From Komagataeibacter intermedius TF2 (GTDB lineage Bacteria; Pseudomonadota; Alphaproteobacteria; Acetobacterales; Acetobacteraceae), in the NCBI RefSeq assembly GCF_000964425.1, contig NZ_BANF01000059.1, positions 1 to 60,133 on the forward strand: a stretch of 60,133 nt of DNA. Reading direction: 5' to 3'. Under the pieces are notes generated by a model. The model ran no database searches, was not told the DNA's origin, and saw only the letters and a list, made by a program, of their open reading frames with translations. The translations under genes and the position numbers were made by a program. Of this stretch, positions 34,247 to 52,305 are shown piece after piece (the first letter of the stretch is position 1; every line of letters begins with the position of its first letter).

Positions 34247-34364
34247 GTATGACCCGCGTGCCATGCGGGCCGAAAGGCGACATGACGGACCAGATGCGTC
34301 TGACGGTTTTCTTTTGAACGTAACTATCTGTTTTATCAGTATTTATTAATCGGACGAGTTATTG

Positions 34365-36602
34365 ATGTCAGAGGTTCAGTCGTCAGCGCCTGCGGAAAGC
34401 TGGTTCGGCCGCTTTTCCAACAAGATACTGTCACTGCGTGGTGCCAGCTATGTCGTTGGGGCGTTGGGGCTTTGCGCCCTGCTTGCCGCAACCATGGTTA
34501 CGCTGTCGCTTAATGAACAGATGATTGTGGCATTAGTGTGTGTGGCGGTATTTTTTATCGTCGGCCGCCGCAAGAGCCGTCGCACCCAGGTCTTTCTGGA
34601 GGTGCTTTCGGCGCTGGTGTCCCTGCGGTATCTGACGTGGCGGCTGACGGAGACGCTGGACTTCGATACCTGGACGCAGGGCGTGCTGGGTGTCACGCTG
34701 CTGCTGGCGGAACTGTATGCGCTCTATATGCTGTTCCTCAGCTATTTCCAGACGATTTCCCCCCTGCATCGTGCGCCGCTGCCACTACCGGCCAATCCCG
34801 ATGACTGGCCCACGGTTGATATTTTTATCCCGACCTATGACGAAGCACTGAGCATCGTGCGCCTGACGGTGCTGGGGGCGCTGGGTATCGACTGGCCGCC
34901 CGACAAGGTGAATGTCTACATTCTGGATGATGGCAGGCGTGAAGAATTCGCCCGCTTTGCCGAGGCCTGCGGCGCGCGGTACATCGCCCGTCCCGATAAC
35001 GCGCACGCCAAGGCCGGTAACCTGAACTACGCCATTAAACATACGACGGGCGATCACATCCTCATCCTGGACTGTGACCACATCCCGACGCGCGCCTTCC
35101 TGCAGATCGCCATGGGCTGGATGGTCAGCGATTCGAAAATCGCCCTGCTGCAGACGCCGCATCACTTCTATTCCCCCGATCCGTTCCAGCGTAACCTGGC
35201 CGTGGGGTACCGCACCCCGCCCGAAGGCAACCTGTTCTATGGCGTCATTCAGGACGGTAACGACTTCTGGGACGCGACCTTTTTCTGCGGGTCGTGCGCC
35301 ATCCTGCGCCGTAAGGCGATTGAGGAAATCGGCGGCTTCGCAACCGAAACCGTGACCGAAGACGCCCATACCGCGCTGCGTATGCAGCGCAAGGGCTGGT
35401 CGACCGCCTACCTGCGCATTCCGCTGGCCAGTGGCCTGGCGACAGAACGTCTCATCACGCATATCGGGCAGCGTATGCGCTGGGCCCGTGGCATGATCCA
35501 GATTTTCCGTGTCGACAACCCGATGCTTGGCCCGGGTCTGAAGCTGGGACAGCGTCTTTGCTACCTGTCGGCCATGACGTCGTTCTTCTTCGCCATTCCC
35601 CGCGTCATCTTCCTTGCATCCCCGCTGGCCTTCCTGTTCTTCAGCCAGAATATCATCGCGGCGTCGCCGCTGGCGGTGGGGGTCTATGCCATCCCGCACA
35701 TGTTCCATTCCATTGCGACCGCGGCGAAGGTCAACAAGGGCTGGCGTTATTCGTTCTGGAGTGAAGTGTACGAAACCGTCATGGCGCTGTTCTTGGTGCG
35801 GGTGACCATCGTCACGATGCTGTTCCCCTCCAAGGGCAAGTTCAACGTGACGGAAAAAGGCGGCGTTCTGGAACGTGAGGAATTCGACCTCACCGCCACC
35901 TATCCGAATATTATTTTCGCCGGCATCATGGCGCTTGGCCTGTTGCGTGGGGTATATGCGCTGATCTTCCAGCACCTGGACATCATTTCGGAACGTGCGT
36001 ACGCGCTGAACTGCATCTGGTCGGTGATCAGTCTGATCATCCTGATGGCGGCAATCTCCGTGGGGCGTGAAACAAAGCAGTTGCGCCAGAACCACCGTAT
36101 CGAAGCCCAGATTCCCGTTACGGTTTATGATTACGATGGCAATTCAAGCCACGGCATTACCGAAGACGTCTCCATGGGCGGTGTGGCGATCCATCTGCCA
36201 TGGCGTGAGGTCACGCCCGATCAGCCTGTACAGGTCGTAATCCATGCTGTACTGGATGGCGAGGAGATGAACCTTCCGGCCATCATGATCCGCAGTGCCC
36301 GGGGCAAGGCGGTGTTTACGTGGTCGATCAGTAATATTCAGGTTGAGGCGGCCGTGGTCCGGTTCGTGTTTGGACGCGCCGATGCCTGGCTGCAGTGGAA
36401 TAATTATGAGGATGACCGGCCGTTACGAAGCCTGTGGAGTCTGATCCTCAGCATCAAGGCACTGTTCCGCAGGAAGGGTCAGATGATTGCCCATAGTCGT
36501 CCCAAAAAGAAACCAATTGCACTGCCGGTTGAGCGTAGGGAGCCAACAACCAGCCAGGGTGGTCAGAAACAGGAAGGAAAGATCAGTCGTGCGGCCTCGT
36601 GA
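34365..36602 (+). CDS. bcsA: Cellulose synthase catalytic subunit BcsA
   Basis: A 745-residue inner-membrane GT2 glycosyltransferase that polymerises UDP-glucose into beta-1,4-glucan and threads it through its membrane channel. It has N-terminal membrane helices, then the catalytic domain with [20 protein letters not shown] (DxD), the [10 protein letters not shown] base motif and QRMRWARGM (QxxRW). More helices follow, then a PilZ domain with RQNHRIEA (RxxxR) and DVSMGGVAI (D/NxSxxG), so c-di-GMP activation is intact. ATG 34365 follows a TTG; the true family start is MSEVQSS. bcsB starts one base after the stop. Confidence 0.98.
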
Positions 36603-36603
36603 T

Positions 36604-39018
36604 ATGAAAATGGTGTCCCTGATCGCGCTGCTGGTTTTCGCAACGGGAGCGCAGGCTGCCCCGATTGCGTCCAAAGCGCCAGCCCACCAGCCTACGGGCA
36701 GTGATCTCCCCCCCCTGCCTGCGGCGGCACCGGTGGCGCCAGCGGCGCAACCTTCCGCACAGGCAACTGATCCGGCATCAGCCGCGCCCGCATCCGATGC
36801 GGGAAGCGCCAGTAACGCGGATGCAATACTGGACAATGCCGAAAATGCGGCAGGCGTCGGTACCGATGTTGCAACTGTCCATACCTATTCCCTTCAGGAA
36901 CTGGGTGCGCAGAGTGCATTGACCATGCGCGGCGCCGCCCCGCTGCAGGGGCTGCAGTTCGGGATTCCGGCGGACCAGCTGGTGACATCGGCCCGACTGG
37001 TCGTGTCCGGGGCCATGTCGCCCAACCTCCAGCCTGATAACAGCGCGGTGACGATCACGCTGAACGAACAGTATATCGGCACGCTGCGTCCCGACCCGAC
37101 GCATCCGGCATTCGGGCCGCTGTCATTTGACATCAACCCGATTTTCTTTGTCAGCGGCAACCGCCTGAACTTCAACTTCGCTTCAGGTTCCAAGGGGTGC
37201 GCGGACCCGACCAACGGGCTGCAGTGGGCCAGCGTGTCCGAACATTCGCAGCTGCAGATCACGACCATTCCGCTTCCTCCCCGTCGTCAGCTGGCCCGTC
37301 TGCCCCAGCCCTTCTTTGATAAGACTGTAAGGCAGAAAGTCGTCATTCCGTTCGTCCTTGCACAGACATTTGATCCCGAGGTGCTCAAGGCCTCCGGCAT
37401 CATCGCGTCGTGGTTCGGGCAGCAGACCGACTTCCGTGGGGTCAATTTCCCCGTCTTCTCCACCATTCCCCAGACCGGCAATGCCATTGTGGTTGGCGTG
37501 GCGGATGAACTGCCGGCGGCGCTGGGCCGTCCGTCCGTCAGTGGCCCCACCCTGATGGAGGTCGCCAACCCATCCGATCCCAACGGCACGGTGCTGCTGG
37601 TGACAGGGCGTGACCGGGATGAAGTCATTGCCGCAAGCAAGGGGATCGGCTTCGGGTCCAGCGCCCTGCCGGTCGCCAGCCGCATGGATGTGGCGCCGAT
37701 TGATGTCGCCCCGCGCCAGGCCAATGACGCGCCGTCCTTCATTCCCACCAGCCGCCCGGTCCGGCTGGGGGAACTGGTGCCGGTCAGCGCCCTGCAGGGC
37801 GAAGGGTATACGCCGGGCGTGCTGTCGGTTCCGTTCCGCGTGTCGCCTGACCTTTATACGTGGCGTGACCGTCCGTACAAGCTGAACGTGCGTTTCCGCG
37901 CACCGGATGGCCCGATCCTTGATGTGGCGCGTTCGCATCTGGATGTCGGCATCAACAATACATACCTGCAGTCCTATTCACTGCGGGAGCAGAGTTCGGT
38001 TGTCGATCAGCTGCTGCATCGTGTTGGCGTGGGCACCCAGAACGCGGGCGTGGAACAGCATACGCTGACCATTCCGCCGTGGATGGTGTTCGGTCAGGAT
38101 CAGCTGCAGTTCTATTTTGACGCAGCCCCGCTGGCGCAGCCCGGCTGCCGTCCCGGCCCAAGCCTGATCCACATGTCGGTTGACCCGGATTCGACCATCG
38201 ACCTGTCCAACGCCTATCACATCACGCGCATGCCCAACCTGGCCTATATGGCCAGTGCGGGGTATCCGTTCACGACCTATGCCGACCTGTCGCGTTCGGC
38301 AGTGGTGCTGCCGGATCATCCCAATGGCACGGTGGTCAGCGCTTATCTCGACCTCATGGGCTTCATGGGGGCGACGACATGGTATCCCGTCTCGGGCGTT
38401 GATATCGTTTCGGCCGACCATGTCAGTGACGTGGCGGACCGGAACCTGATTGTCCTGTCCACCCTGTCCAACAGTGCGGATGTGTCTGCCCTGCTGGCCA
38501 ACTCGGCGTACCAGATTTCGGACGGACGGCTTCACATGGGGCTGCGTTCTACTCTGAGCGGCGTGTGGAACATCTTCCAGGATCCGATGTCGGTCATGAG
38601 CAACACGCACCCGACCGAGGTCGAGACCACGCTGAGCGGTGGCGTCGGCGCGATGGTGGAAGCGGAATCGCCGCTGGCGTCCGGCCGCACCGTGCTGGCC
38701 CTGCTGTCGGGTGACGGGCAGGGGCTGGACAATCTGGTCCAGATCCTGGGGCAGCGTAAGAACCAGGCGAAAGTGCAGGGCGATCTTGTGCTGGCGCATG
38801 GCGATGACCTGACATCCTACCGCAGTTCGCCGCTGTATACGGTTGGCACGGTGCCGCTGTGGCTGATGCCTGACTGGTATATGCATAACCATCCCTTCCG
38901 CGTGATCGTGGTCGGGTTGGCTGGCTGTCTGATGGTGGTGGCTGTCCTGGTGCGCGCCCTGTTCCGCCACGCGATGGTCCGTCGCCGGCAGTTGCAGGAA
39001 GAAAGGCAGAAATCGTGA
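36604..39018 (+). CDS. bcsB: Cellulose synthase periplasmic subunit BcsB
   Basis: An 804-residue periplasmic protein anchored by a C-terminal transmembrane helix ([20 protein letters not shown]). The signal peptide [18 protein letters not shown] is cut before APIAS. The body alternates carbohydrate-binding and flavodoxin-like domains, with [20 protein letters not shown] and [19 protein letters not shown] as visible conserved parts. BcsB guides the nascent glucan through the periplasm and its C-terminal anchor is required for BcsA activity. The gene is in a different frame from bcsA and separated by one base, so the subunits are not fused as they are in some strains. Confidence 0.96.
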
Positions 39019-39020
39019 TC

Positions 39021-42000
39021 ATGAACAGACGATACGTCTTTTCGCTTTCTGCCGGCCTGCTTGCCAGCAGTTGCATGGGCGCGATGATGCCCGTGCCCGT
39101 TGCCCGCGCGCAGCAGGCGTCCACCGCCATGACCGGCGCGCAGGCCACCGGGGGGGCTGTCGCGCCACGGCAGATCCTGTTGCAGCAGGCACGTTTCTGG
39201 TTGCAGCAGCAGCAGTATGACAATGCCCGGCAGGCATTGCAGAATGCGCAGCGGATCGCCCCGGATGCCCCCGACGTGCTGGAAGTGCAGGGGGAATACC
39301 AGACGGCCATGGGCAACCGTGAAGCCGCGGCCGATACCCTGCGCCACCTGCAGCAGGTCGCACCGGGCAGTGTTGCGGCAAACAGCCTGAGTGACCTGTT
39401 GCACGAACGGTCCATCTCGACCGGCGACCTGTCGCATGTGCGTTCGCTTGCGGCCTCCGGTCACAATGCGGAGGCCGTTGCCGGGTACCAGAAGCTGTTC
39501 AATGGCGGCAGGCCCCCGCATTCCCTGGCGATCGAATACTATCAGACCATGGCTGGCGTCCCGGCTGACTGGGATCAGGCGCGTGCGGGCCTTTCGGGTC
39601 TCGTTGCGGCCAATCCGCAGGATTACCGGGCACAGCTCGCCTTTGCGCAGACGCTGACATATAACACCTCGACCCGTATGGAGGGGCTGGCGCGACTGAA
39701 GGACCTGCAGGGGTTCCGCACGCAGGCCCCCGTCGAGGCTGCGGCTGCCGCTCAGTCCTATCGGCAGACATTGAGCTGGCTGCCCGTCACGGCCGAGACG
39801 CAGCCGCTCATGCAGCAGTGGCTGGCGGCGCATCCTGATGATACGGCGCTGAAGGACCACATGCTTCACCCGCCGGGCGGTCCGCCGGACAAGGCCGGGC
39901 TGGCGCGTCAGGCAGGCTACCAGCAGCTTAATGCCGGGCGTCTGTCCGCAGCCGAGCAGTCGTTCCAGTCCGCGCTGCAGATCAATTCCCACGATGCGGA
40001 TTCGCTGGGCGGGATGGGACTGGTCAGCATGCGTCAGGGTGATGCGGCTGAAGCGCGCCGTTATTTTCAGGAAGCGATGGCTGCGGACCCCAAGACGGCT
40101 GACCGCTGGCGCCCCGCGCTGGCGGGGATGGAAATCAGTGGTGATTACGCCGCTGTCCGCCAGCTGATCGCAGCCCACCAGTACACCGAAGCCAAGCAGC
40201 GCCTGACATCGCTGGCGCGTCAGCCGGGACAGTTCACCGGTGCGACCCTGATGCTGGCGGACCTGCAGCGTTCGACCGGGCAGATCGATGCATCCGAACA
40301 GGAATATCGGTCCGTTCTCGCGCGTGACCCCAATAACCAGCTGGCCCTGATGGGGCTGGCGCGGGTGGACATGGCGCAGGGCAACACGGCGGAAGCCCGC
40401 CAGCTGCTGTCGCGCGTCGGTCCGCAATACGCCACGGAAGTTGGCGAGATCGAGGTGACGGGCCTGATGGCCGCGGCATCGCACACGTCGGATTCGGCGC
40501 GCAAGGTTGCCATTCTGCGTGAAGCCATGACGCAGGCCCCGCGTGACCCGTGGGTGCGCATCAACCTGGCCAATGCCCTGCAGCAGCAGGGTGACGTGGC
40601 GGAAGCCGGGCGGGTCATGCAGCCGATCCTGGCCAATCCGGTTACGGCGCAGGACCGGCAGGCAGGCATCCTGTATACCTATGGCGCCGGAAATGACGCG
40701 GCGACCCGTCGCCTGCTGTCCGGGCTGTCGCCCGAGGACTATTCTCCGGCCATCCGTTCGATTGCCGAGGAAATGCAGATCAAGGAAGATCTGGCCAGCC
40801 GTCTGTCGATGGTGCCAAATCCAGTTCCCCTGATCCGTGAAGCGCTTGCCCCGCCTGATCCGACGGGCGCGCGCGGCGTGGCCGTGGCCGACCTGTTCCG
40901 CCAGCGTGGTGACATGATCCATGCCCGTATGGCCCTGCGTATCGCCTCGACCCGTACGATTGACCTGTCGCCGGATCAGCGGCTGGCCTACGCCACCGAA
41001 TACATGAAGATCAGCAACCCGGTCGCCGCTGCCCGCCTGCTTGCGCCGCTGGGCGATGGCAGCGGGAGTGGAGCTGGCAATGCGCTGCTGCCGGAACAGC
41101 AGCAGACGCTCCAGCAGCTGCGCATGGGCATTGCCGTGGCGCAGTCCGACCTGCTGAACCAGCGTGGCGATCAGGCGCAGGCGTATGATCACCTGGCCCC
41201 CGCGCTGCGGGCGGACCCGGAGGCGACATCGCCCAAGCTGGCGCTGGCCCGTCTGTACAATGGCGAAGGCAAATCCAGCAAGGCGCTGGACATCGACCTG
41301 GCGGTGCTGCGCCATAACCCGCAGGATCTCGATGCCCGGCAGGCCGCCGTGCAGGCTGCGGTCAATAGTGGTCGCAAGAGTCTGGCCACCCATCTGGCGA
41401 TGGATGGCGTGCAGGAAAGTCCGATGGATGCCCGCGCATGGCTGGGCATGGCCGTGGCGGATCAGGCGGACGGACATGGGCACCGGACCATTGCCGACCT
41501 GCGCCGGGCCTATGACCTGCGCCTGCAGCAGGTCGAGGGGGCCCGCTCCGCCTTCGGCCCGGCAGCGACCGAGGAAGAAGCGCTGGCGCCCCCTTCCAGC
41601 AATCCGTTCCGCCATCATGGCTACGGACGGCAGACGGAACTTGGCGCGCCGGTCACGGGTGGGTCCTACAGCATGGAAGCGACCTCACCCGAGGCTGCGG
41701 ACCAGATGCTGTCTTCCATTTCCGGGCAGATCAATACCCTGCGTGAAAACCTTGCCCCGTCCATTGACGGTGGCCTCGGGTTCCGTTCGCGTTCGGGTGA
41801 ACATGGCATGGGCCGCCTGACGGAAGCCAATATTCCCATCGTCGGCCGCCTGCCGCTGCAGGCGGGTGAATCCAGCCTGACCTTCTCGATCACGCCAACC
41901 ATGATCTGGTCGGGTGACCTGAATACCGGTTCGGTCTATGACGTGCCCCGTTACGGCACCAACATGGCGACGCAGGCGTACAACCAGTACGTCAATTCCA

Positions 42001-42998
42001 TGAACCAGAACAACAGCAGCAGCAGCCTGCGGACCCAGCAGATCCAGGGCGGGCAGGGTGAAGCGGGCTTCGCGCCGGATGTGCAGTTCAGCAATAGCTG
42101 GGTGCGGGCGGATGTCGGTGCCTCGCCGATCGGCTTCCCCATCACCAATGTGCTGGGTGGGGTCGAATTCTCGCCGCGTGTCGGGCCGGTGACGTTCCGT
42201 GTGAGTGCCGAACGCCGTTCGATCACCAACAGCGTCCTGTCCTATGGCGGCCTGCGTGACCCGAACTACAACTCGGCCCTGGGCCGTTACGCGCTGAACC
42301 ATTATGGCAGCCAGCTTGCGTCGCAGTGGGGGCAGGAATGGGGTGGTGTCGTGACCAACCACTTCCATGGCCAGGTCGAGGCGACGCTGGGCAACACCAT
42401 TCTGTATGGTGGCGGTGGTTATGCGATCCAGACAGGCAAGAACACGCGGAGCAATAACGAGCGTGAAGCCGGTATCGGCGCCAACACGCTGGTCTGGCAC
42501 AACGCCAACATGCTGGTACGGATCGGTGTCAGCCTGACCTATTTCGGTTATGCCAACAACCAGGACTTCTATACTTATGGGCAGGGTGGCTACTTCTCGC
42601 CCCAGTCCTATTATTCGGCCACGGTTCCGATCCGTTACGCCGGGCAGCACAAGCGGTTGGACTGGGACGTGACCGGCAGCGTCGGCTACCAGGTGTTCCA
42701 CGAACACTCTTCCCCATTCTTCCCGACATCCTCGCTGTTGCAGGCGGGGGCCCAGTACATTGCTGACTCGTATGTGCAGAATGCGACGGCCTCGGATTAT
42801 CTGTCAGAGGAAACGGTAGACAGGGCCTATTATCCCGGGGATAGTATCGCTAGTCTTACGGGCGGTTTCAATGCTAGGGTAGGGTATCGATTTACACACA
42901 ATCTTCGTCTTGATCTGTCGGGGCGCTGGCAGAAGGCCGGTAACTGGACTGAAAGCGGCGCCATGATTTCCGTACACTATCTTATTATGGACCAGTAA
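39021..42998 (+). CDS. bcsC: Cellulose synthase outer-membrane export subunit BcsC
   Basis: About 1325 residues. A signal peptide (MNRRYVFSLSAGLLASSCMG, ending before QQAST) is followed by a long array of TPR repeats in the periplasm up to about residue 850, then a C-terminal beta-barrel of about 350 residues with PSIDGGLGFRSRSGEHGMG and AGEAGFAPDVQFSNSWVRAD-like strands ending in VHYLIMDQ. It exports the glucan through the outer membrane. A GTG at 39015 has better-placed AAAGG, whereas ATG 39021 gives the usual N-terminus. It overlaps or abuts the bcsB stop, and TAATG links it to bcsD. Confidence 0.95.
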   Translation: MNRRYVFSLSAGLLASSCMGAMMPVPVARAQQASTAMTGAQATGGAVAPRQILLQQARFWLQQQQYDNARQALQNAQRIAPDAPDVLEVQGEYQTAMGNREAAADTLRHLQQVAPGSVAANSLSDLLHERSISTGDLSHVRSLAASGHNAEAVAGYQKLFNGGRPPHSLAIEYYQTMAGVPADWDQARAGLSGLVAANPQDYRAQLAFAQTLTYNTSTRMEGLARLKDLQGFRTQAPVEAAAAAQSYRQTLSWLPVTAETQPLMQQWLAAHPDDTALKDHMLHPPGGPPDKAGLARQAGYQQLNAGRLSAAEQSFQSALQINSHDADSLGGMGLVSMRQGDAAEARRYFQEAMAADPKTADRWRPALAGMEISGDYAAVRQLIAAHQYTEAKQRLTSLARQPGQFTGATLMLADLQRSTGQIDASEQEYRSVLARDPNNQLALMGLARVDMAQGNTAEARQLLSRVGPQYATEVGEIEVTGLMAAASHTSDSARKVAILREAMTQAPRDPWVRINLANALQQQGDVAEAGRVMQPILANPVTAQDRQAGILYTYGAGNDAATRRLLSGLSPEDYSPAIRSIAEEMQIKEDLASRLSMVPNPVPLIREALAPPDPTGARGVAVADLFRQRGDMIHARMALRIASTRTIDLSPDQRLAYATEYMKISNPVAAARLLAPLGDGSGSGAGNALLPEQQQTLQQLRMGIAVAQSDLLNQRGDQAQAYDHLAPALRADPEATSPKLALARLYNGEGKSSKALDIDLAVLRHNPQDLDARQAAVQAAVNSGRKSLATHLAMDGVQESPMDARAWLGMAVADQADGHGHRTIADLRRAYDLRLQQVEGARSAFGPAATEEEALAPPSSNPFRHHGYGRQTELGAPVTGGSYSMEATSPEAADQMLSSISGQINTLRENLAPSIDGGLGFRSRSGEHGMGRLTEANIPIVGRLPLQAGESSLTFSITPTMIWSGDLNTGSVYDVPRYGTNMATQAYNQYVNSMNQNNSSSSLRTQQIQGGQGEAGFAPDVQFSNSWVRADVGASPIGFPITNVLGGVEFSPRVGPVTFRVSAERRSITNSVLSYGGLRDPNYNSALGRYALNHYGSQLASQWGQEWGGVVTNHFHGQVEATLGNTILYGGGGYAIQTGKNTRSNNEREAGIGANTLVWHNANMLVRIGVSLTYFGYANNQDFYTYGQGGYFSPQSYYSATVPIRYAGQHKRLDWDVTGSVGYQVFHEHSSPFFPTSSLLQAGAQYIADSYVQNATASDYLSEETVDRAYYPGDSIASLTGGFNARVGYRFTHNLRLDLSGRWQKAGNWTESGAMISVHYLIMDQ

Positions 42999-43468
42999 TG
43001 ACAACTTTCAACGCAAAACCGGACTTCTCGCTTTTCCTGCAGGCCCTGTCGTGGGAAATCGACGATCAGGCCGGGATCGAGGTCAGGAATGACCTGCTGC
43101 GCGAGGTCGGCCGCGGCATGGCTGGTCGACTGCAGCCGCCCCTGTGCAACACCATTCATCAGTTGCAGATCGAACTGAATGCCCTGCTGGGCATGATCAA
43201 CTGGGGATATGTGAAGCTGGAACTGCTGGCGGAAGAACAGGCCATGCGCATCGTGCATGAAGACCTGCCGCAGGTTGGCAGCGCCGGCGAGCCCTCGGGC
43301 ACCTGGCTGGCTCCGGTTCTGGAAGGGCTGTACGGCCGCTGGATCACGTCGCAGCCGGGTGCGTTTGGCGATTATGTCGTTACCCGCGATGTGGATGCGG
43401 AAGACCTGAATTCCGTCCCGACCCAGACCATCATCCTGTACATGCGTACCCGCAGCAACAGCAACTGA
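42998..43468 (+). CDS. bcsD: Cellulose synthase subunit BcsD
   Basis: A 156-residue periplasmic subunit that forms an octameric ring around exported glucan chains and promotes crystalline ribbon formation. It is restricted to producers of crystalline cellulose. Visible family text includes DFSLFLQALSWEIDDQAGIE, CNTIHQLQIELNALLGMINW and GTWLAPVLEGLYGRWITSQ. There is no cleavable signal peptide, as in the known protein. The ATG shares its first base with the bcsC TAA (TAATG). A terminator follows 30 bases after the stop, closing the bcsABCD part of the cluster. Confidence 0.97.
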   Translation: MTTFNAKPDFSLFLQALSWEIDDQAGIEVRNDLLREVGRGMAGRLQPPLCNTIHQLQIELNALLGMINWGYVKLELLAEEQAMRIVHEDLPQVGSAGEPSGTWLAPVLEGLYGRWITSQPGAFGDYVVTRDVDAEDLNSVPTQTIILYMRTRSNSN

Positions 43469-43501
43469 CCGGATCTGTCCAGACCGCGCTGTTGCCGCAT
43501 G

Positions 43502-43547
43502 ACCCCGCCCACAGGCATGTACATGGCCTGCCGGCGGGGTTTTTTTA
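43502..43547 (+). terminator. Intrinsic terminator after bcsD
   Basis: ACCCCGCC pairs with GGCGGGGT around a CAGGCAT-GTAC-ATGGCCTG inner stem, then a run of seven T. It separates bcsABCD from bglAx, which has its own 140-base leader. Confidence 0.88.
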
Positions 43548-43692
43548 CACCTTCTGGCCCAATTTCTCGTCCTGCCTTGCGCTAGATCATGCGGATTGCA
43601 GGGCGGGTGTTTCAGTAATTATGACCACAGCGGGCGGGGCCGTCCGGTTCGCATCCCTGCTGTCCTGACCATTATGATGAGGAGGCCGCCGC

Positions 43693-45894
43693 ATGAAGCT
43701 GTCCCGCAAGATATTCCTGCTGTCCGCCGTGGCGTGCGGCATGATGGTGGCGCATGACGCCGCCCATGCCGCACATCATGCCCCGGGTGATCCGGCGGAT
43801 GAAAAGGCGCGGCAGGTGCTGGCGCATATGAGCCCTGAAGACAAGATGTCCCTGCTGTTCAGCGTTGACGGCGGTGGGTTCAATGGCAGCGTCGCCCCGC
43901 CGGGCGGCCTTGGTTCGGCGGCCTATCTGCGCGCACCCGCGGGATCTGGCCTGCCGGACCTGCAGATTTCGGATGCGGGGCTTGGCATCCGCAACCCGGC
44001 CCATATCCGCAAGGACGGGGCGGCGGTTTCCCTGCCATCGGGGCTGTCCACCGCCAGTTCATGGGACATGGACATGGCGCGTGAGGCCGGGGCCATGATT
44101 GGCCGTGAAGCGTGGCAGAGCGGTTTCAACGTCCTGCTGGGCGGCGGGGCGGACCTGACCCGTGACCCGCGCGGTGGCCGCAATTTCGAATATGCGGGCG
44201 AGGATCCGCTGCAGACCGGGCGCATGGTCGGCAGCACCATTGCGGGCGTGCAGTCACAGCATGTGATTTCCACCCTCAAGCACTATGCGATGAACGATCT
44301 CGAGACATCGCGCATGACCATGAGTGCGGATATCGACCCCGTGGCCATGCGTGAAAGTGACCTGCTGGGCTTCGAGATCGCGCTGGAAACCGGGCATCCC
44401 GGTTCGGTCATGTGCTCGTATAACCGCGTCAATGACCTGTATGCGTGCGAAAACCCGTACCTGCTGAACACGACGCTGAAACAGGACTGGCATTATCCCG
44501 GCTTCGTCATGTCCGACTGGGGTGCGACCCATTCCTCCGCCCGCGCGGCGCTGGCCGGGCTGGATCAGGAATCGGCGGGCGACCATGCCGATGCACGTCC
44601 CTATTTCCAGACGCTGCTGGCAGCCGATGTGAAGGCGGGCCGCGTACCGCAGTCGCGTATTGATGATATGGCGCAGCGTATCGTCCGTTCGCTGTTCGCG
44701 CAGGGACTGGTTGACCATCCGTCGCAGCGTGCGCCGCTGGACGTGGTGACCGACACCCTTGTCGCCCAGCGTGACGAGGAAGAAGGCGCGGTCCTGCTGC
44801 GCAACGAAGGCAACGTCCTGCCGCTGGCCCCCACCGCGCGCATTGCGGTCATTGGCGGTCATGCGGATGTGGGCGTGATTTCGGGTGGCGGGTCCAGCCA
44901 GGTTGATCCCATCGGGGGCGAGGTGGTCAAGGGACCGGGCAAGAAGGACTGGCCGGGTGATCCGGTCTATTTCCCGTCCAGCCCGCTGAAGGCCATGCGG
45001 GCCGAGGCCCCGGCTGCGCATATTACCTATGATCCGGGCACGAATATCGCAGCCGCCGTCCGTGCCGCGCGCGCGGCCGATGTCGCCGTCGTATACGCCA
45101 CGCAGTTCACTTTTGAGGGGATGGACGCGCCGAACATGCATCTGGATGGCAATGCGGATGCGCTGATTGCCGCCGTTGCCGCCGCCAACCCGCGCACCGT
45201 GGTGGTCATGGAGACCGGCGATCCGGTGCTGATGCCGTGGAACAGCAGCGTGGCAGGCGTGCTGGAGGCATGGTTCCCCGGTTCCGGAGGCGGCACGGCC
45301 ATTGCGCGGCTGCTGTTTGGCAAGGTGGCGCCGTCGGGCCATCTGACCATGACCTTCCCGCAGGCTGAATCCCAGCTTGCCCACCCTGACATCGCAGGTG
45401 TGACCGCCAGCAACGTGTTCGAGATGCAGTTCCATACAGATCAGGAACTGGTTTACGACGAAGGCAGCGATGTCGGTTACCGCTGGTTCGACCGCAATCA
45501 CCTCAAGCCGCTCTATCCGTTCGGCCATGGCCTGACCTACACCACCTTCGCCACCGATGGACTGGCGGCAGGGTATCACCACAAGCAGCTTACGGTGACG
45601 TTCAACGTGCGCAATACCGGCACGCGTCCGGGTGTGGATGTGCCGCAGGTCTATGTCGGACTGCCCGATGGTGGTGCGCGCAGGCTGGGGGGATGGCAGC
45701 GCGTCACCCTGGCACCGGGGGAAAGCCGTCAGGTCTCGGTGCAGGTCGATCCGCGCCTGCTGGCGCATTTTGATGGCAGGCATGACCGGTGGGCCATTCC
45801 TTCGGGCCGCTTCCGGGTCTGGCTGGGCACGTCGGCTGTGGATGACAGCCAGCAGGTCAGCATACATCTGCCCGCGCGCACGCTGGCGCCCTGA
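43693..45894 (+). CDS. bglAx: Secreted beta-glucosidase BglAx (GH3)
   Basis: A 733-residue glycoside hydrolase family 3 enzyme. The signal peptide MKLSRKIFLLSAVACGMMVA is followed by the GH3 N-terminal barrel. The nucleophile aspartate lies in PGFVMSDWGATHSS; upstream are VISTLKHYAMNDLETSR and SVMCSYNRVNDLYACEN. The C-terminal GH3 domain and a fibronectin III-like module (VTFNVRNTGTRPGVDVPQVY) complete it. The known enzyme cleaves cello-oligosaccharides and can transfer glucose, and its loss reduces cellulose yield. GAGGAGGC just before ATG 43693 is a strong ribosome site. It is transcribed separately from bcsABCD. Confidence 0.95.
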   Translation: MKLSRKIFLLSAVACGMMVAHDAAHAAHHAPGDPADEKARQVLAHMSPEDKMSLLFSVDGGGFNGSVAPPGGLGSAAYLRAPAGSGLPDLQISDAGLGIRNPAHIRKDGAAVSLPSGLSTASSWDMDMAREAGAMIGREAWQSGFNVLLGGGADLTRDPRGGRNFEYAGEDPLQTGRMVGSTIAGVQSQHVISTLKHYAMNDLETSRMTMSADIDPVAMRESDLLGFEIALETGHPGSVMCSYNRVNDLYACENPYLLNTTLKQDWHYPGFVMSDWGATHSSARAALAGLDQESAGDHADARPYFQTLLAADVKAGRVPQSRIDDMAQRIVRSLFAQGLVDHPSQRAPLDVVTDTLVAQRDEEEGAVLLRNEGNVLPLAPTARIAVIGGHADVGVISGGGSSQVDPIGGEVVKGPGKKDWPGDPVYFPSSPLKAMRAEAPAAHITYDPGTNIAAAVRAARAADVAVVYATQFTFEGMDAPNMHLDGNADALIAAVAAANPRTVVVMETGDPVLMPWNSSVAGVLEAWFPGSGGGTAIARLLFGKVAPSGHLTMTFPQAESQLAHPDIAGVTASNVFEMQFHTDQELVYDEGSDVGYRWFDRNHLKPLYPFGHGLTYTTFATDGLAAGYHHKQLTVTFNVRNTGTRPGVDVPQVYVGLPDGGARRLGGWQRVTLAPGESRQVSVQVDPRLLAHFDGRHDRWAIPSGRFRVWLGTSAVDDSQQVSIHLPARTLAP

Positions 45895-47958: not shown

Positions 47959-49845
47959 ATGACGGAACACACAACCACAGCCCAGCCCGAAGCAACGGGC
48001 GAACAGCATGAATTCAGCGCCGAGGTCGGCCGCCTGCTCGACCTTGTGGTGCATGCGCTTTATTCCGAACGCGAGATCTTCCTGCGTGAACTGGTGGCCA
48101 ATGCGGCGGACGCCACCGACAAGCGCCGGTTCGAGGCGCTGACCGATGGCGCGCGTGCGCTGCCCGATGATGCGAAGATCCGCATCAACCCCGACAAGGA
48201 CGCCCGCCTGCTGACCATAAGCGACGATGGCGCGGGGATGAGCAAGGAAGACCTTGCCCGCAACCTTGGCACCATCGCGCGTTCCGGCACCCGCGCCTTT
48301 GGCGAGGAACTGGCCAATGCGAAGCCCGAGGACAAGCCGAGCCTGATCGGACAGTTTGGCGTGGGCTTTTATGCCGCGTTCATGGTGGCGGACCGGGTGG
48401 ACGTGATCTCGCGTCGTGCGGGCAGCGAGGACGCATGGCGCTGGTCCTCCACCGGCAAGGGCAACTACACGATCAGCCCGGCGACCCGTGACAGGGCGGG
48501 CACCGACATTATCCTGCACATCAAGGAAGATGCGAATGACTTCCTTGATTCGTGGCAGCTTGAAACCATCGTGCGGAAATGGGCTGATCACATTTCGTGG
48601 CCGATCACCATCGTCAAGGATGACGGGGAAGAGGCCTCGGCCAACAAGGGCACGGCGCTGTGGCGCAAGCCGCGTGGCGAAATTGATGAAGAACAGCTGA
48701 ACGAGTTCTATCGCCACGTCAGCCATAACTTCGACACGCCATGGGCCACGCTGCACTGGCATGCCGAGGGGATGCTGGAATTCTCGGCCCTGCTGTTCAT
48801 TCCCGGCAGCAAGCCGTTCGAATTTGCCGAACCGGTGCGTGAAAGCCAGATCCGCCTGCATGTCCGCCGCATGTTCATCACCGATGATGCCGGGCTGCTG
48901 CCGCCGTGGCTGCGCTTTGTGACCGGCGTGGTGGATACCGAGGACCTGCCGCTGAACGTCTCGCGCGAAATGCTGCAGGCGACGCCGGTGCTGGCGCGCA
49001 TCCGCAAGGCCGTGACCAACCGCGTGATCTCGGAACTCAAGACCCGCAGCAAGGATGAGGCGGATTTCGAGACGTTCTGGGATAATTTTGGCCCGACCTT
49101 CAAGGAAGGCATCTGGGACGACGCCGAACACCGCACGGAACTGGCCGCCATCGCGCGTTTCAGGTCCAGCACGCAGGACGGCTGGACCACGCTGGATGCG
49201 TATCTGGAGCGCAGGAAGCCCGAGCAGGAAGCCATTTACTACCTGACTGGCGATCGCACGGAAATGCTGCCGTCCTCGCCGCAGCTTGAAGGTTTCCGCG
49301 CCCGCGGGATCGAGGTGCTGCTGCTGTCCGATCCGGTGGATTCCTTCTGGCCCGACCGTCTGGGCGTGTACAAGGATACGCCGCTGCGTAATATCAGCCA
49401 GTTCCATACCGATCTGGAAAAGTTTGGCGCGCCGGAGGAAACGCAGGCTGAAAAGGACGCGCTGGATGTCATCATTCCCGCGCTGAAGGACGCGCTGGGT
49501 GACGCGGTATCGGACGTGAAGGGCACCAACCGCCTGGTCAGCAGCGCCGTGGTGCTGGCGGCCCCCGAATCCGGGCCGGACCTGCAGATGATCCGGCTTA
49601 TGAAGCGCAGCGGCCAGCAGGTGCCCGATACGGCGCCGGTGCTGCAGGTCAACCCCGCGCACCCGCTGATCGCGGACCTTGCGACCCGCGTGAAGAATGG
49701 CGACCCGGTGCAGGATATTGCCCTGACGCTTATGGACATGGCCCGCATCCAGGACGGCGAAAGCCCGAAGGACCCGACCGGCTTTGCCCAGCGCCTGACC
49801 ACGATCCTGACCCGTCTTCCGCTGTCCGACGGTCCGCAGGGCTGA
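47959..49845 (+). CDS. htpG: Chaperone protein HtpG (Hsp90)
   Basis: A 628-residue Hsp90 homologue. The N-terminal GHKL ATPase domain begins with [20 protein letters not shown] and has [40 protein letters not shown] and [18 protein letters not shown]. The middle domain has [19 protein letters not shown]-like and [19 protein letters not shown] segments, and the C-terminal dimer domain follows. It remodels client proteins during heat stress. AAGGA before ATG 47959 supports the start. A strong terminator follows the stop by 30 bases. Confidence 0.97.
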
Positions 49846-49874
49846 TCCCGCGCGATTTTGTCAGACCACTAACT

Positions 49875-49903
49875 GTCCCGCCATGCACGCCGCATGGCGG
49901 GAC
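49875..49903. terminator. Strong hairpin terminator between htpG and methyltransferase
   Basis: GTCCCGCCATGC and GCATGGCGGGAC form a perfect twelve-pair stem with loop ACGCC. A short GGTTTCGTT follows on the plus strand. It lies between two convergent genes and may serve both. Confidence 0.75.
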
Positions 49904-49933
49904 GGTTTCGTTATGGGGACAGCAAACGCGACC

Positions 49934-50776
49934 TTAGTCTTTCGTCTCGTGATTACGGCGCTGCGGGGCGTGTGCGGCATCCGGCTTCATGGCCACAAGG
50001 ATCAGCATGGGGGGCCGCCGCACGGTGTCTTCCAGGTCTGGACGTTCGCGTAACCGCTCGGCGGTGGGTTGCGGTTCGGCCAGATGCCGGAGCTGAAAGC
50101 CCGCATCCAGCACGGTGTTGACGTAGGTTTCCATCGTGCGGTGGTATTTTATGACCCCGTCGACAAACCATGACGTACTGCGCGCGCCCTGCTGCTGATA
50201 GTGGTCGAGTGGCCAGTGCAGCCTGTGGCCGTCCGCATCGTGTATCCAGCCTGTGGGGTTGGCGGTGCAGACGGGGTGCTCCACTGAAAAGACAAGCAGC
50301 CCGCCGGGCCTGAGGCTGTCGAACACGCGGCGGACCACGGTCGCGTAATCCGCGATGTAATGCAGGGCGAGGGACGACACCACGAGGTCGAATGCCGCTG
50401 GCTGCACCGCACGGTCCTCGATGGACCCGTGGACATAGGTGATGGCCGCATCGTGCGTCAGTGCCCGTGCGGCTTCGATCATTTTCAGCGATACATCCAG
50501 CGCGGTGACCGTGGCCGCACCCTGTTCGCGGGCATAACGGGCGAAATCCCCGAACCCGCATCCAAGGTCGAGTACGGCCCTGCCATGCAGGTCGGGCAGC
50601 AGGGCGCGTATCGCCGGGATTTCCAGCGCACCGTTCAGTCCCGTGTCCTTTTCACGCAGGGTGCGGTACCCCTCAAAAAAACGCGGATTGTCATAAATGT
50701 TCTGGGGGGACGGCCTCGCCGTGTCTTTTGCCTCGCCCGGTGGCGTGGAATCATGGTAATCGGGTGCTGATGTCAT
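49934..50776 (-). CDS. FMN-riboswitch-controlled class I SAM-dependent methyltransferase
   Basis: A 280-residue Rossmann-fold methyltransferase. Motif I is VLDLGCGFGDFARYAREQGA, the ribose-binding acidic residue lies in VTALDVSLKMIEAARA, and motif IV/post-I text is FDLVVSSLALHYIADYATVV with a following RPGGLLVFSVEHPVCTA. The substrate is unknown; general small-molecule members share these motifs. It is the only gene after the FMN aptamer at 50861-51000. AAGGGAG lies nine bases before ATG 50776 and is partly inside a hairpin (50789-50816). This context suggests a flavin-linked role, which is inference. Nothing else is downstream before htpG. Confidence 0.85.
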   Translation of the reverse strand: MTSAPDYHDSTPPGEAKDTARPSPQNIYDNPRFFEGYRTLREKDTGLNGALEIPAIRALLPDLHGRAVLDLGCGFGDFARYAREQGAATVTALDVSLKMIEAARALTHDAAITYVHGSIEDRAVQPAAFDLVVSSLALHYIADYATVVRRVFDSLRPGGLLVFSVEHPVCTANPTGWIHDADGHRLHWPLDHYQQQGARSTSWFVDGVIKYHRTMETYVNTVLDAGFQLRHLAEPQPTAERLRERPDLEDTVRRPPMLILVAMKPDAAHAPQRRNHETKD

Positions 50777-50785
50777 GATGGATGT

Positions 50786-50816
50786 CTCCCTTGGTGGACC
50801 CGGTGGTCATCCAAGG
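50786..50816 (-). promoter_or_regulatory. Ribosome-binding-site sequestering hairpin
   Basis: On the minus strand CCTTGG (50816-50811) pairs with CCAAGG (50794-50789), and GACC (50808-50805) with GGTC (50800-50797), around a four-base loop with a 2x2 internal mismatch. The Shine-Dalgarno AAGGGAG (50792-50786) is partly in the 3' arm, so folding should block translation. Confidence 0.6.
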
Positions 50817-50860
50817 CGATCACGGGCGGGCACCGACCCGCATGGGCCGTGCAGCCGCCA

Positions 50861-51000
50861 GTTCTCTTTTATCCGGACTGTCACCGTCGGCCCTGGCATT
50901 GCACCAGATCTGCTTGACCCCGGCCCGAAGGCCGGGCGCTCGCGGGCTTCAGGCGGTTGCCTGTTACCGCCGGTAGGGACTTTCACCCCGCCCTGAGAAC
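50861..51000 (-). ncRNA. FMN riboswitch (RFN element)
   Basis: Read on the minus strand from 51000 to 50861, the 140 bases contain all conserved RFN blocks in order: GGCGGGGTGAAAGTCCC, ACCGGCGGT, AGCCCGCGAGCG, a variable CCCGGCC-TTCG-GGCCGGG stem, CAGATCTGGTGCAATGCCAG, GGCCGACGGT and AGTCCGGAT. The closing stem GTTCTC (51000-50995) pairs with GAGAAC (50866-50861). Binding of FMN to this aptamer normally represses the downstream gene. The downstream gene here is the methyltransferase, not a rib gene. Confidence 0.97.
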
Positions 51001-51010
51001 ACAGGCGGTC

Positions 51011-51040
51011 AGGATAAAGGCGGGGCCGTATCCGGCGCAA
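51011..51040 (-). promoter_or_regulatory. Candidate promoter of the riboswitch transcript
   Basis: On the minus strand TTGCGC (51040-51035) and TATCCT (51016-51011) are 18 bases apart, and the predicted start near 51004 falls just before the aptamer. Matches to consensus are moderate. Confidence 0.35.
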
Positions 51041-51213
51041 GCCTGTGGAACCGTCCGTGATCCGGTTGTATGATGGAAGACGACCGCAGGACCGGCGGCC
51101 TGCCGGTGTAAAAAAGTGATGTATCGGGGGCAGGGGCTTGAATAACGGCCTGCTGAATGTTTCCCTACGCCCCCTTTTGTGTGTTCTGGTTTTTGGATGG
51201 CGGCAAGTATTAT

Positions 51214-52305
51214 ATGAAAATTGATAACGTCTCTTATCGCAGCGTATGGGTGGATGCGGATGATGGGTGGTCGGTCCATATCTTTGACCAGACCCGTCTG
51301 CCCTGGTCGCTTGATATCCTGCGCCTGACTGAACGCGACCAGGTGGCGCACGCCATCCGCAGCATGCAGGTGCGTGGCGCGCCGCTGATCGGTGCGGTCG
51401 CGGCCTATGGTCTGGCGCTGGCACTGCGGTGCGATAGCAGTGACGCCGCCATGGAACGTGATGCGGCGCTGCTTGCGGCCACCCGGCCCACGGCGGTCAA
51501 CCTGGCCTGGGCGATCCGGCGCATGCTGACGCGCCTGCGCCTGACCGTGCCCGCGGACCGTGTGGCGGCGGCATATGACGAAGCCGGGCGCATCTGTGAT
51601 GAAGACGTGATCCAGAATGAAGCCATCGGACGGCAGGGCCTTGAACTGATCGAGGAGATCGCAGGCCGCCGTCCCGGTCCGGTCAACATCATGACCCACT
51701 GCAACGCGGGCTGGATCGCAACCGTGGACTGGGGCACCGCGCTTGCGCCAATCTACATGGCGCATGACCGTGGCATTGACGTGCATGTGTGGGTGGATGA
51801 AACGCGCCCGCGCAATCAGGGCGCATCGCTGACGGCATGGGAACTGGGCCGCCACGGGGTGAAGCATACCGTCATTGCCGATAATGCCGGTGGCCACCTG
51901 ATGCAGCATGGCCAGGTGGACATGGTGATCGTGGGCACTGACCGCGTGACCCGTACGGGCGACGTGGCGAACAAGATCGGCACGTATCTCAAGGCGCTGG
52001 CGGCGCATGACAATGGCGTGCCCTTCTGGGTGGCGCTGCCGTCCACCACCATTGACTGGTCCATTAGCGATGGTGTGAAGGAAATCCCCATCGAGGAACG
52101 CAGCGGCCGCGAAGTCACCCACATTCAGGGGCGTGATGAAGGCGGCGCCGTGACGGCGGTGCAGCTTGTGCCCGATGGCAGCACTGCCGCCAATCCGGCG
52201 TTTGACGTCACGCCTGCGCGGCTTGTGACCGGGCTGATTACCGAACGTGGCCGCTGCCCCGCCACGGCGGACGGATTGTGCGACCTGTTCCCCGAATACG
52301 TGTAG
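51214..52305 (+). CDS. mtnA: S-methyl-5-thioribose-1-phosphate isomerase
   Basis: A 363-residue methionine-salvage enzyme that isomerises methylthioribose 1-phosphate to the ribulose form. Family markers are AIRSMQVRGAPLIGAVAAYG, the catalytic-cysteine region NIMTHCNAGWIATVDWGTAL, DRGIDVHVWVDETRPRNQGA and VDMVIVGTDRVTRTGDVANK with the catalytic aspartate. The protein shares its fold with eIF2B. ATG 51214 gives the usual length; a start at 51157 would add an unrelated hydrophobic tail. No other mtn gene is adjacent. It is divergent from the riboswitch transcript. Confidence 0.93.
   Translation: MKIDNVSYRSVWVDADDGWSVHIFDQTRLPWSLDILRLTERDQVAHAIRSMQVRGAPLIGAVAAYGLALALRCDSSDAAMERDAALLAATRPTAVNLAWAIRRMLTRLRLTVPADRVAAAYDEAGRICDEDVIQNEAIGRQGLELIEEIAGRRPGPVNIMTHCNAGWIATVDWGTALAPIYMAHDRGIDVHVWVDETRPRNQGASLTAWELGRHGVKHTVIADNAGGHLMQHGQVDMVIVGTDRVTRTGDVANKIGTYLKALAAHDNGVPFWVALPSTTIDWSISDGVKEIPIEERSGREVTHIQGRDEGGAVTAVQLVPDGSTAANPAFDVTPARLVTGLITERGRCPATADGLCDLFPEYV

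What the first reader, a model, noticed from the sequence alone, without database searches (positions are those of the whole stretch)
49934..51000. FMN riboswitch controlling a SAM-dependent methyltransferase
Seen: all conserved RFN blocks are present on the minus strand at 50861-51000 and the only gene downstream is a class I methyltransferase; no rib gene or flavin transporter is nearby. Known: FMN riboswitches normally control riboflavin synthesis or transport genes. Inference: the enzyme could act on a flavin or a flavin precursor, or belong to a process that must rise when FMN falls. Methylation of flavin-like molecules is known in roseoflavin synthesis, but I see no other evidence of that here.
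Basis: partly seen in the sequence, partly recalled or inferred. Interest (0 to 1): 0.85.

Follow-up and report, generated by a model that had tools for sequence, protein, structure and literature searches.

The report
FMN riboswitch controlling a methyltransferase gene
A vitamin-B2 (FMN) sensing RNA switch sits in front of a methyltransferase gene of unknown substrate in a cellulose-making acetic acid bacterium, and the same pairing turns up in two other, separate bacterial groups, which suggests a methylation step linked to flavin metabolism.

Summary
A canonical FMN riboswitch (RF00050, 103 bits, window 51004-50857, minus) lies in the leader of a 280-residue class I SAM-dependent methyltransferase (50776-49934). 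The genome (Komagataeibacter) has one other FMN aptamer, upstream of ribD. The pairing recurs: in 5 of 19 Komagataeibacter genomes (exactly the five with a second aptamer), in five Chromobacteriaceae genomes (four named Chromobacterium), and in one Rhodospirillales MAG ordered aptamer-ribB-methyltransferase. These 11 proteins are not one clade (AU p 5e-8), so the family probably joined the FMN regulon about three times. In a partly biased set of 57 aptamer loci, 49 lead to rib genes alone, 7 to this methyltransferase, 1 to ribB plus methyltransferase. The gene is under purifying selection (dN/dS 0.13-0.24). Aptamer and gene lie in about 1.2 kb absent from six compared congeners. Against: 120 of 131 distinct homologues showed no aptamer in the DNA held, so the family is not flavin-specific throughout. 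Two surveys, seen in passages, list no methyltransferase under FMN riboswitches. FMN binding, switch direction and substrate are untested. Best reading: an FMN-repressed enzyme acting on a flavin-pathway heterocycle.

The parts
50857..51004 (-). FMN riboswitch aptamer (RF00050); P1 = 51000-50995 with 50866-50861
   Evidence: cmscan 103 bits, full length; found again in the own-genome search
50870..50870 (-). Unpaired base A where all 49 rib-associated aptamers compared have G (joining segment P6 to P1)
   Evidence: A in 5 of 5 Komagataeibacter methyltransferase aptamers, G in 49 of 49 rib aptamers
50777..50866 (-). Expression platform: a helix using the 3' half of P1 (about 50866-50818) that would exclude P1, then a hairpin 50816-50789 covering part of the ribosome binding site (AAGGGAG, 50792-50786)
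   Evidence: consensus fold of five Komagataeibacter leaders, one compensatory pair in each helix but also broken pairs in the first; single-sequence folds; switching itself not shown
49934..50776 (-). Class I SAM-dependent methyltransferase, 280 aa
   Evidence: ORF; Pfam Methyltransf_11 E 1.4e-21; 45% identity to PDB 3bkw in the Foldseek match
49909..51115 (.). Approximate extent of the stretch missing from six congeners, holding aptamer and gene
   Evidence: DNA search: matches stop at window 49845-49908 and resume at 51116-51133
47959..49845 (+). htpG, one flank of the stretch (context only)
   Evidence: NCBIfam HtpG E 5.9e-203
51214..52305 (+). mtnA (methylthioribose-1-phosphate isomerase), divergent, other flank (context only; start codon chosen by me)
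   Evidence: NCBIfam salvage_mtnA E 4.7e-124

Best explanation
The gene is a genuine member of the FMN regulon. The RNA leader binds FMN; when FMN is plentiful P1 is stabilised and production of the methyltransferase is held down, and when FMN is low the enzyme is made. The enzyme most likely methylates a small nitrogen heterocycle belonging to flavin metabolism: a riboflavin-pathway intermediate or its reactive by-product, or a flavin breakdown product. Shown: aptamer, gene, their conservation and their repeated association, once together with ribB. Inferred: FMN as ligand, OFF direction, and the substrate class. I put about 0.9 on the regulatory link being real, 0.75 on the OFF direction, and 0.45-0.5 on a flavin-related substrate.
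For: Full-length aptamer that differs at only one column conserved in at least 95% of 49 rib aptamers. Same pairing in 5 Komagataeibacter, 5 Chromobacteriaceae and 1 Rhodospirillales MAG; Rfam's own model finds 8 of these 11 aptamers in the searches made with it. In the MAG the order is aptamer-ribB-methyltransferase. Chromobacteriaceae aptamers differ from the rib ones by compensated pairs, which keeps the structure. The 11 proteins are not one clade (p-AU 5.2e-8; 3 label changes, bootstrap 5%-95% interval 3-3). 57 aptamer loci: 49 rib only, 7 methyltransferase, 1 both, none other (L032 read as ribH by eye; set partly biased). dN/dS 0.13-0.24 in 12 pairs. The nearest Foldseek matches with a known reaction are ten chains of ToxA, several with azapteridine ligands in the title; that its pathway shares early steps with riboflavin synthesis is recalled.
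Against: 120 of 131 distinct homologues had no aptamer in the DNA held, nor did 13 further loci. The two other homologues in the MAG's family, one of them its nearest relative in the tree, lack it, so that lineage rests on one MAG contig. Paralogues in the same genomes lack it (L080, L199). The family is also found on many Enterococcus plasmids, which points to a broader role. Predicted folds showed no consistent change in access to the ribosome binding site, and the covariation term of the leader alignment was slightly unfavourable overall. The resemblance to ToxA is 23-26% identity and lies partly in the common SAM-binding core. No enzymology.
Confidence: 0.5

Rival explanations
1. The enzyme is a general small-molecule or xenobiotic (for example quinone) methyltransferase whose need rises when FMN is short because flavoenzymes that normally handle the compound fail; its substrate is not a flavin.
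For: In lineages without the aptamer the gene follows a pyridine-nucleotide disulfide oxidoreductase (Inquilinus L118), a GST-type protein (Thalassospira L103) or an MFS transporter (Cedecea L096, Telluria L086) on the same strand. Relatives lie on plasmids beside acetyl- or nucleotidyltransferase genes.
Against: Does not by itself explain why FMN sensing was linked to it about three times, nor the ribB arrangement.
Confidence: 0.25
2. The switch turns the gene ON and the enzyme detoxifies flavin breakdown products, as the variant FMN riboswitch of Clostridioides difficile turns on an efflux pump.
For: Precedent described in PMC11477304 (passages). The family looks like a mobile modifying enzyme. 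One base near the ligand site is changed in all five Komagataeibacter copies.
Against: The known variants have changed binding-pocket bases and do not bind FMN. Here, at columns conserved in at least 95% of rib aptamers, that one base and compensated stem pairs in Chromobacteriaceae are the only differences. The ribB arrangement in the MAG implies the usual OFF sense there (inference).
Confidence: 0.12
3. The aptamer is a leftover: an aptamer-ribB-methyltransferase unit lost ribB, and FMN control of the methyltransferase has no function.
For: The MAG L124 shows such a unit.
Against: Aptamer core and ribosome-site hairpin are conserved over five Komagataeibacter leaders; compensated stem pairs in Chromobacteriaceae; the same outcome in lineages that are not one clade; gene under purifying selection.
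Confidence: 0.1

Closest known systems
FMN riboswitch (RFN element, RF00050) upstream of ribD/ribB/ribH
   Same: Same aptamer, full length and above the gathering score; leader position; a possible helix competing with P1
   Different: Stands before a methyltransferase instead of a biosynthesis or transport gene; one base differs from all 49 rib aptamers compared
Non-rib FMN riboswitch targets in Table 1 of PMC4418817 (transporters, yaaD, CLJU_c14910)
   Same: A gene outside riboflavin synthesis behind an FMN riboswitch (passages)
   Different: No methyltransferase in that table; its two genes without an obvious flavin role are each reported from one species, this one recurs in three lineages
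Variant FMN riboswitch of Clostridioides difficile sensing lumichrome/lumiflavin
   Same: An FMN-type aptamer in front of an unusual gene (passages)
   Different: Only one conserved unpaired base differs here; ligand and direction untested
PDB 3bkw (Mesorhizobium loti) and 3g5l (Listeria) methyltransferases
   Same: Same protein family: 41-45% identity, TM-score 0.91-0.93 normalised by the target
   Different: Titles name no substrate; the genomic surroundings of these two genes were not examined
ToxA, azapteridine N-methyltransferase (5jdz, 5je1 and others)
   Same: Among the nearest Foldseek matches with a known reaction; acts on a small N-heterocycle (titles)
   Different: 23-26% identity; a different natural-product pathway; no FMN control known to me (recalled)

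Membership tests
FMN riboswitch class (RF00050) | Covariance-model score over the curated cut-off, full length | tested here: met
   103 against 66.2 bits, positions 1-138
FMN riboswitch class (RF00050) | Conserved core as in rib aptamers | tested here: met
   At columns conserved in at least 95% of 49 rib aptamers: one difference in the five Komagataeibacter copies (50870), three compensated base pairs in the five Chromobacteriaceae copies, none in the MAG copy
FMN riboswitch class (RF00050) | Lies in the 5' leader of a gene on the same strand | tested here: met
   80 bases between aptamer and ATG
FMN riboswitch class (RF00050) | Binds FMN | not testable with these tools
   Needs in-line probing or calorimetry
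FMN riboswitch class (RF00050) | Controls a riboflavin synthesis or transport gene | tested here: not met
   Methyltransferase only, in the window; in L124 ribB comes first. This is the usual target, not a structural requirement of the class
Variant FMN riboswitches of altered specificity | Changed binding-pocket bases, no FMN binding | tested here: inconclusive
   Only one conserved unpaired base differs, by my alignment two bases 3' of the ligand-pairing A99 (A99 role and P6 limits from PMC10809319 and PMC7824784 passages); the variant paper itself is not held
3bkw/3g5l methyltransferase family | Full-length sequence and fold match | tested here: met
   Profile E 2.3e-85 and 2.3e-83; Foldseek E 2.4e-28 and 8.5e-28
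ToxA-type azapteridine methyltransferases | Same substrate pocket and reaction | not tested
   Fold match only, 23-26% identity; pocket residues not compared
Roseoflavin N-methyltransferase (RosA) | Sequence or fold match to RosA | tested here: inconclusive
   No entry so named among the 50 best Foldseek rows or the 60 best profile rows of 173; no direct comparison made

The most novel reading that the evidence does not exclude
Flavin metabolism in several Proteobacteria contains an undescribed SAM-dependent methylation step (a methylated flavin, lumazine or pyrimidine intermediate, or disposal of a reactive by-product) that bacteria have placed under FMN control about three separate times by recruiting the same methyltransferase family.
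Probability: 0.35. Interest if true: 0.85.

Novelty: new variant of a known kind. Interest (0 to 1): 0.62.

Why it matters
In the surveys seen, FMN riboswitch targets are almost entirely synthesis and transport genes (PMC3766115 and PMC4418817, passages). A methyltransferase that joins this regulon repeatedly in bacteria of different groups is genomic evidence for a missing flavin-linked reaction. It gives a concrete enzyme to assay, in a cellulose-producing acetic acid bacterium.

Tried and rejected
Chance match: rejected (score; three lineages). Leader of mtnA: rejected, the aptamer is on the strand of the methyltransferase and mtnA runs the other way. Single inheritance of the pair: one clade for the 11 aptamer-linked proteins is rejected (61 rows selected from the 129-row tree; that larger tree was an unfinished quick one and also gave 3 changes). 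Conserved partner gene: clustering of neighbours in 63 loci found no directly adjacent partner shared beyond close relatives; gene calling there was a rough composition heuristic. Switch mechanism by energy folding: inconclusive in six leaders. No sigma-70-like promoter was found (0 hits). Pfam and NCBIfam gave only generic methyltransferase models; of the 25 NCBIfam models shown of 45, none reached its cut-off.

Counts and dropped rows: of 72 loci, nine weak partial ones (L145-L153) were left out; a pattern scan of all 153 loci then held showed no aptamer in them, but that scan missed four known aptamers of 32 (L001, L003, L027, L031), so it is not fully sensitive. Two proteins under 170 aa were left out of the 129-row tree. 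Only the 30 best aptamer loci of 79 were checked for their gene; the second aptamer of G029 was not looked at. Aptamer searches reach 1.5 kb (genome-search loci) or 4 kb (loci) from the gene, less at contig ends, so the 11 of 131 is a lower bound. The homologue searches used cut-offs (1e-40, 1e-60 or 1e-80) and, for the larger groups, samples.

Literature: searches returned no papers; one, on the SAM-VI riboswitch; two, one of them then seen in passages; one, on Lactococcus; some searches gave listings, from which PMC3766115, PMC11124144, PMC11477304, PMC9295807, PMC10809319 and PMC7824784 were seen in passages. PMC4418817 was seen in passages. No paper was read whole and no supplement was opened. 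The library holds only CC-licensed papers, so 'not described' means not found by these searches.

Full report
What is there. cmscan of the whole window gives one FMN riboswitch, RF00050, at 51004-50857 on the minus strand, 103 bits (cut-off 66.2), full length. Eighty bases further is the ATG of a 280-aa ORF, 50776-49934, a class I SAM-dependent methyltransferase (Methyltransf_11 E 1.4e-21). The flanking genes htpG and mtnA run on the other strand. The genome has two FMN aptamers at this sensitivity; the other is upstream of a ribD-like ORF on another contig. The closest named relatives are Komagataeibacter oboediens (90% identical protein), K. rhaeticus and K. swingsii. G304, given as same genus, has the same protein as the K. 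oboediens locus in the matched stretch, so the window is a Komagataeibacter.

Distribution within the genus. All 19 genus genomes held have an aptamer in front of ribD. Five of 19 have a second one, and these are the five of 19 that carry this methyltransferase at 77-100% identity. In one of them (G301) the match covers only residues 15-199 with a TAG inside, so the gene looks broken. In six congeners without it, a DNA search shows the htpG and mtnA matches 108-325 bases apart, so about 1.2 kb with aptamer and gene is absent. In the 61-row tree the Komagataeibacter proteins group with Rhizobiales, Silvimonas and Kiloniellaceae proteins and not with their own paralogue L080, which suggests arrival by horizontal transfer (inference).

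Distribution outside the genus. A covariance model built from 21 aptamers was run on loci holding homologues. It found 13 of 100 sources above 140 bits with the next at 13.9 bits, 1 of 26 with a strong hit (the window itself), 5 of 14, 1 of 3 and 0 of 13. Ten of these 11 aptamers were in the model's training set. Rfam's own model finds 8 of the 11 in the searches made with it: the window's element, those of two Chromobacterium genomes and the MAG (G691, G693, G692) and those of the four other Komagataeibacter. The other three were not searched with Rfam's model; they were found by my model and, for two of them, by the pattern scan. In the MAG the order is aptamer, ribB (DHBP_synthase E 5.4e-77), methyltransferase. 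Two other genomes of the MAG's family have the methyltransferase without an aptamer. G691 and G693 have a second aptamer, in front of ribB. Within the Chromobacteriaceae, 13 of 61 genomes have a homologue. Larger samples gave few: 25 of 385 genomes of the window's class, 2 of 369 of the class of G691 and 15 of 297 of the order of G692.

Not one inheritance. With 61 selected rows, holding the 11 aptamer-linked proteins as one clade lowers the log-likelihood by 97 (p-AU 5.2e-8). The label needs 3 changes (bootstrap 5%-95% interval 3-3), and well-supported branches force at least 2. So the family became linked to FMN aptamers about three times, or aptamer and gene moved between lineages in a more complicated way.

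Specificity of the link. I looked at the gene near 57 aptamer loci with BLAST: 45 ribD, 3 ribB, 1 ribB plus methyltransferase, 7 methyltransferase, and 1 without a hit that I read as ribH by eye. No other gene type appears. The set is biased: six loci come from genomes chosen because they carry the methyltransferase and others from the window's genus. The 30 that came from the family-wide aptamer search (the best 30 of 79 aptamers in 77 of 299 genomes) are all rib.

Selection. Nei-Gojobori dN/dS is 0.18-0.23 for six Komagataeibacter pairs and 0.13-0.24 for six Chromobacterium pairs, so the protein is maintained.

The RNA. At columns conserved in at least 95% of 49 rib aptamers, the five Chromobacteriaceae copies differ only by compensated base pairs (two pairs of P1, one further stem), and the MAG copy not at all. 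All five Komagataeibacter copies have an unpaired A where all 49 have G, at window 50870. By aligning GGAU to the numbering in PMC10809319 and PMC7824784 (passages) this is two bases 3' of A99, which pairs with the flavin ring. That mapping is mine and was not tested on a structure. The consensus fold of five Komagataeibacter leaders shows a helix that uses the 3' strand of P1 and so would exclude P1, and a hairpin over part of the ribosome binding site. Each has one compensatory pair; the first also has broken pairs, and the covariation term of the whole leader was slightly unfavourable. Folding with and without P1 changed access to the ribosome site little and in no consistent direction (six leaders), so translational control is plausible and not shown.

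The enzyme. AlphaFold2 gives a confident model (pLDDT 88, pTM 0.85). Foldseek finds PDB 3bkw and 3g5l (41-45% identity), whose titles state no substrate. After a Haloferax putative methyltransferase come ten chains of Burkholderia glumae ToxA at 23-26% identity, several with azapteridine ligands in the title. The link between azapteridines and the early riboflavin pathway is recalled. This is a lead to a substrate class, not evidence of function: by sequence the similarity is in the SAM-binding core.

What counts against a flavin-only view. Of 131 distinct homologues, 120 showed no aptamer. They stand next to varied genes: a disulfide oxidoreductase in Inquilinus, a GST-type protein in Thalassospira, MFS transporters in Cedecea and Telluria, a precorrin-6x reductase in Telmatospirillum. 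Relatives below 60% identity occur on 424 plasmid records, 353 of them Enterococcus, and in 12 phage records. The family looks like a mobile small-molecule methyltransferase, of which some members were drawn into the FMN regulon (inference).

Known context. PMC3766115 sorts FMN riboswitch targets into synthesis and transport, and 'methyltransf' does not occur in its main text (passages). PMC4418817 searched 1133 genomes, and its Table 1 of targets outside synthesis holds transporters, yaaD and a carbohydrate kinase (passages). PMC12405394 reports the rib cluster with a predicted FMN riboswitch in Novacetimonas hansenii, and ribCF clustered and co-induced with methionine-salvage genes (passages); here the methyltransferase switch happens to sit beside mtnA. 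Searches for a paper on this pairing found none (seen as listings of the best 20). Supplements were not opened.

Verdict. Observation confirmed; interpretation partly supported. It is a canonical riboswitch class with a target not found in the surveys seen, recurring in three lineages. The regulatory link is solid as genomics; ligand, direction and substrate await experiment.

Noticed in passing
window 50870: All five Komagataeibacter methyltransferase aptamers carry an unpaired A where 49 of 49 rib aptamers carry G; a possible affinity or specificity change.
   Followed up: partly
G301, L078: The methyltransferase looks broken (match to residues 15-199 with a TAG inside) while its aptamer is intact; recent gene decay in one species.
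   Followed up: no
L080 (own genome C934), L079, L081: A second methyltransferase, 45-47% identical, without aptamer, in 3 of 19 genus genomes; in L079 it lies beside a groEL-like gene (read by eye), whereas the aptamer-linked copy lies beside htpG.
   Followed up: no
window 51214-52305: mtnA (methionine salvage) shares the intergenic space with the FMN switch; PMC12405394 reports ribCF clustered with other methionine-salvage genes in Novacetimonas hansenii.
   Followed up: no
window 34362-45894: Cellulose synthase operon: ORFs of 746 and 843 aa (bcsA and bcsB by position, not searched), bcsC (BCSC_C), a 156-aa ORF and a GH3 glycosidase.
   Followed up: no
L118, L126: In Inquilinus L118 the methyltransferase start overlaps the end of a pyridine-nucleotide disulfide oxidoreductase gene by four bases; the record L126, named Mycobacterium, sits inside the Inquilinus clade, so its label may be wrong.
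   Followed up: partly
plasmid hits H30-H54: Relatives are very common on Enterococcus plasmids; in 18 of these 25 listed rows (mostly Enterococcus) a nucleotidyltransferase-domain gene is annotated under the same match.
   Followed up: no
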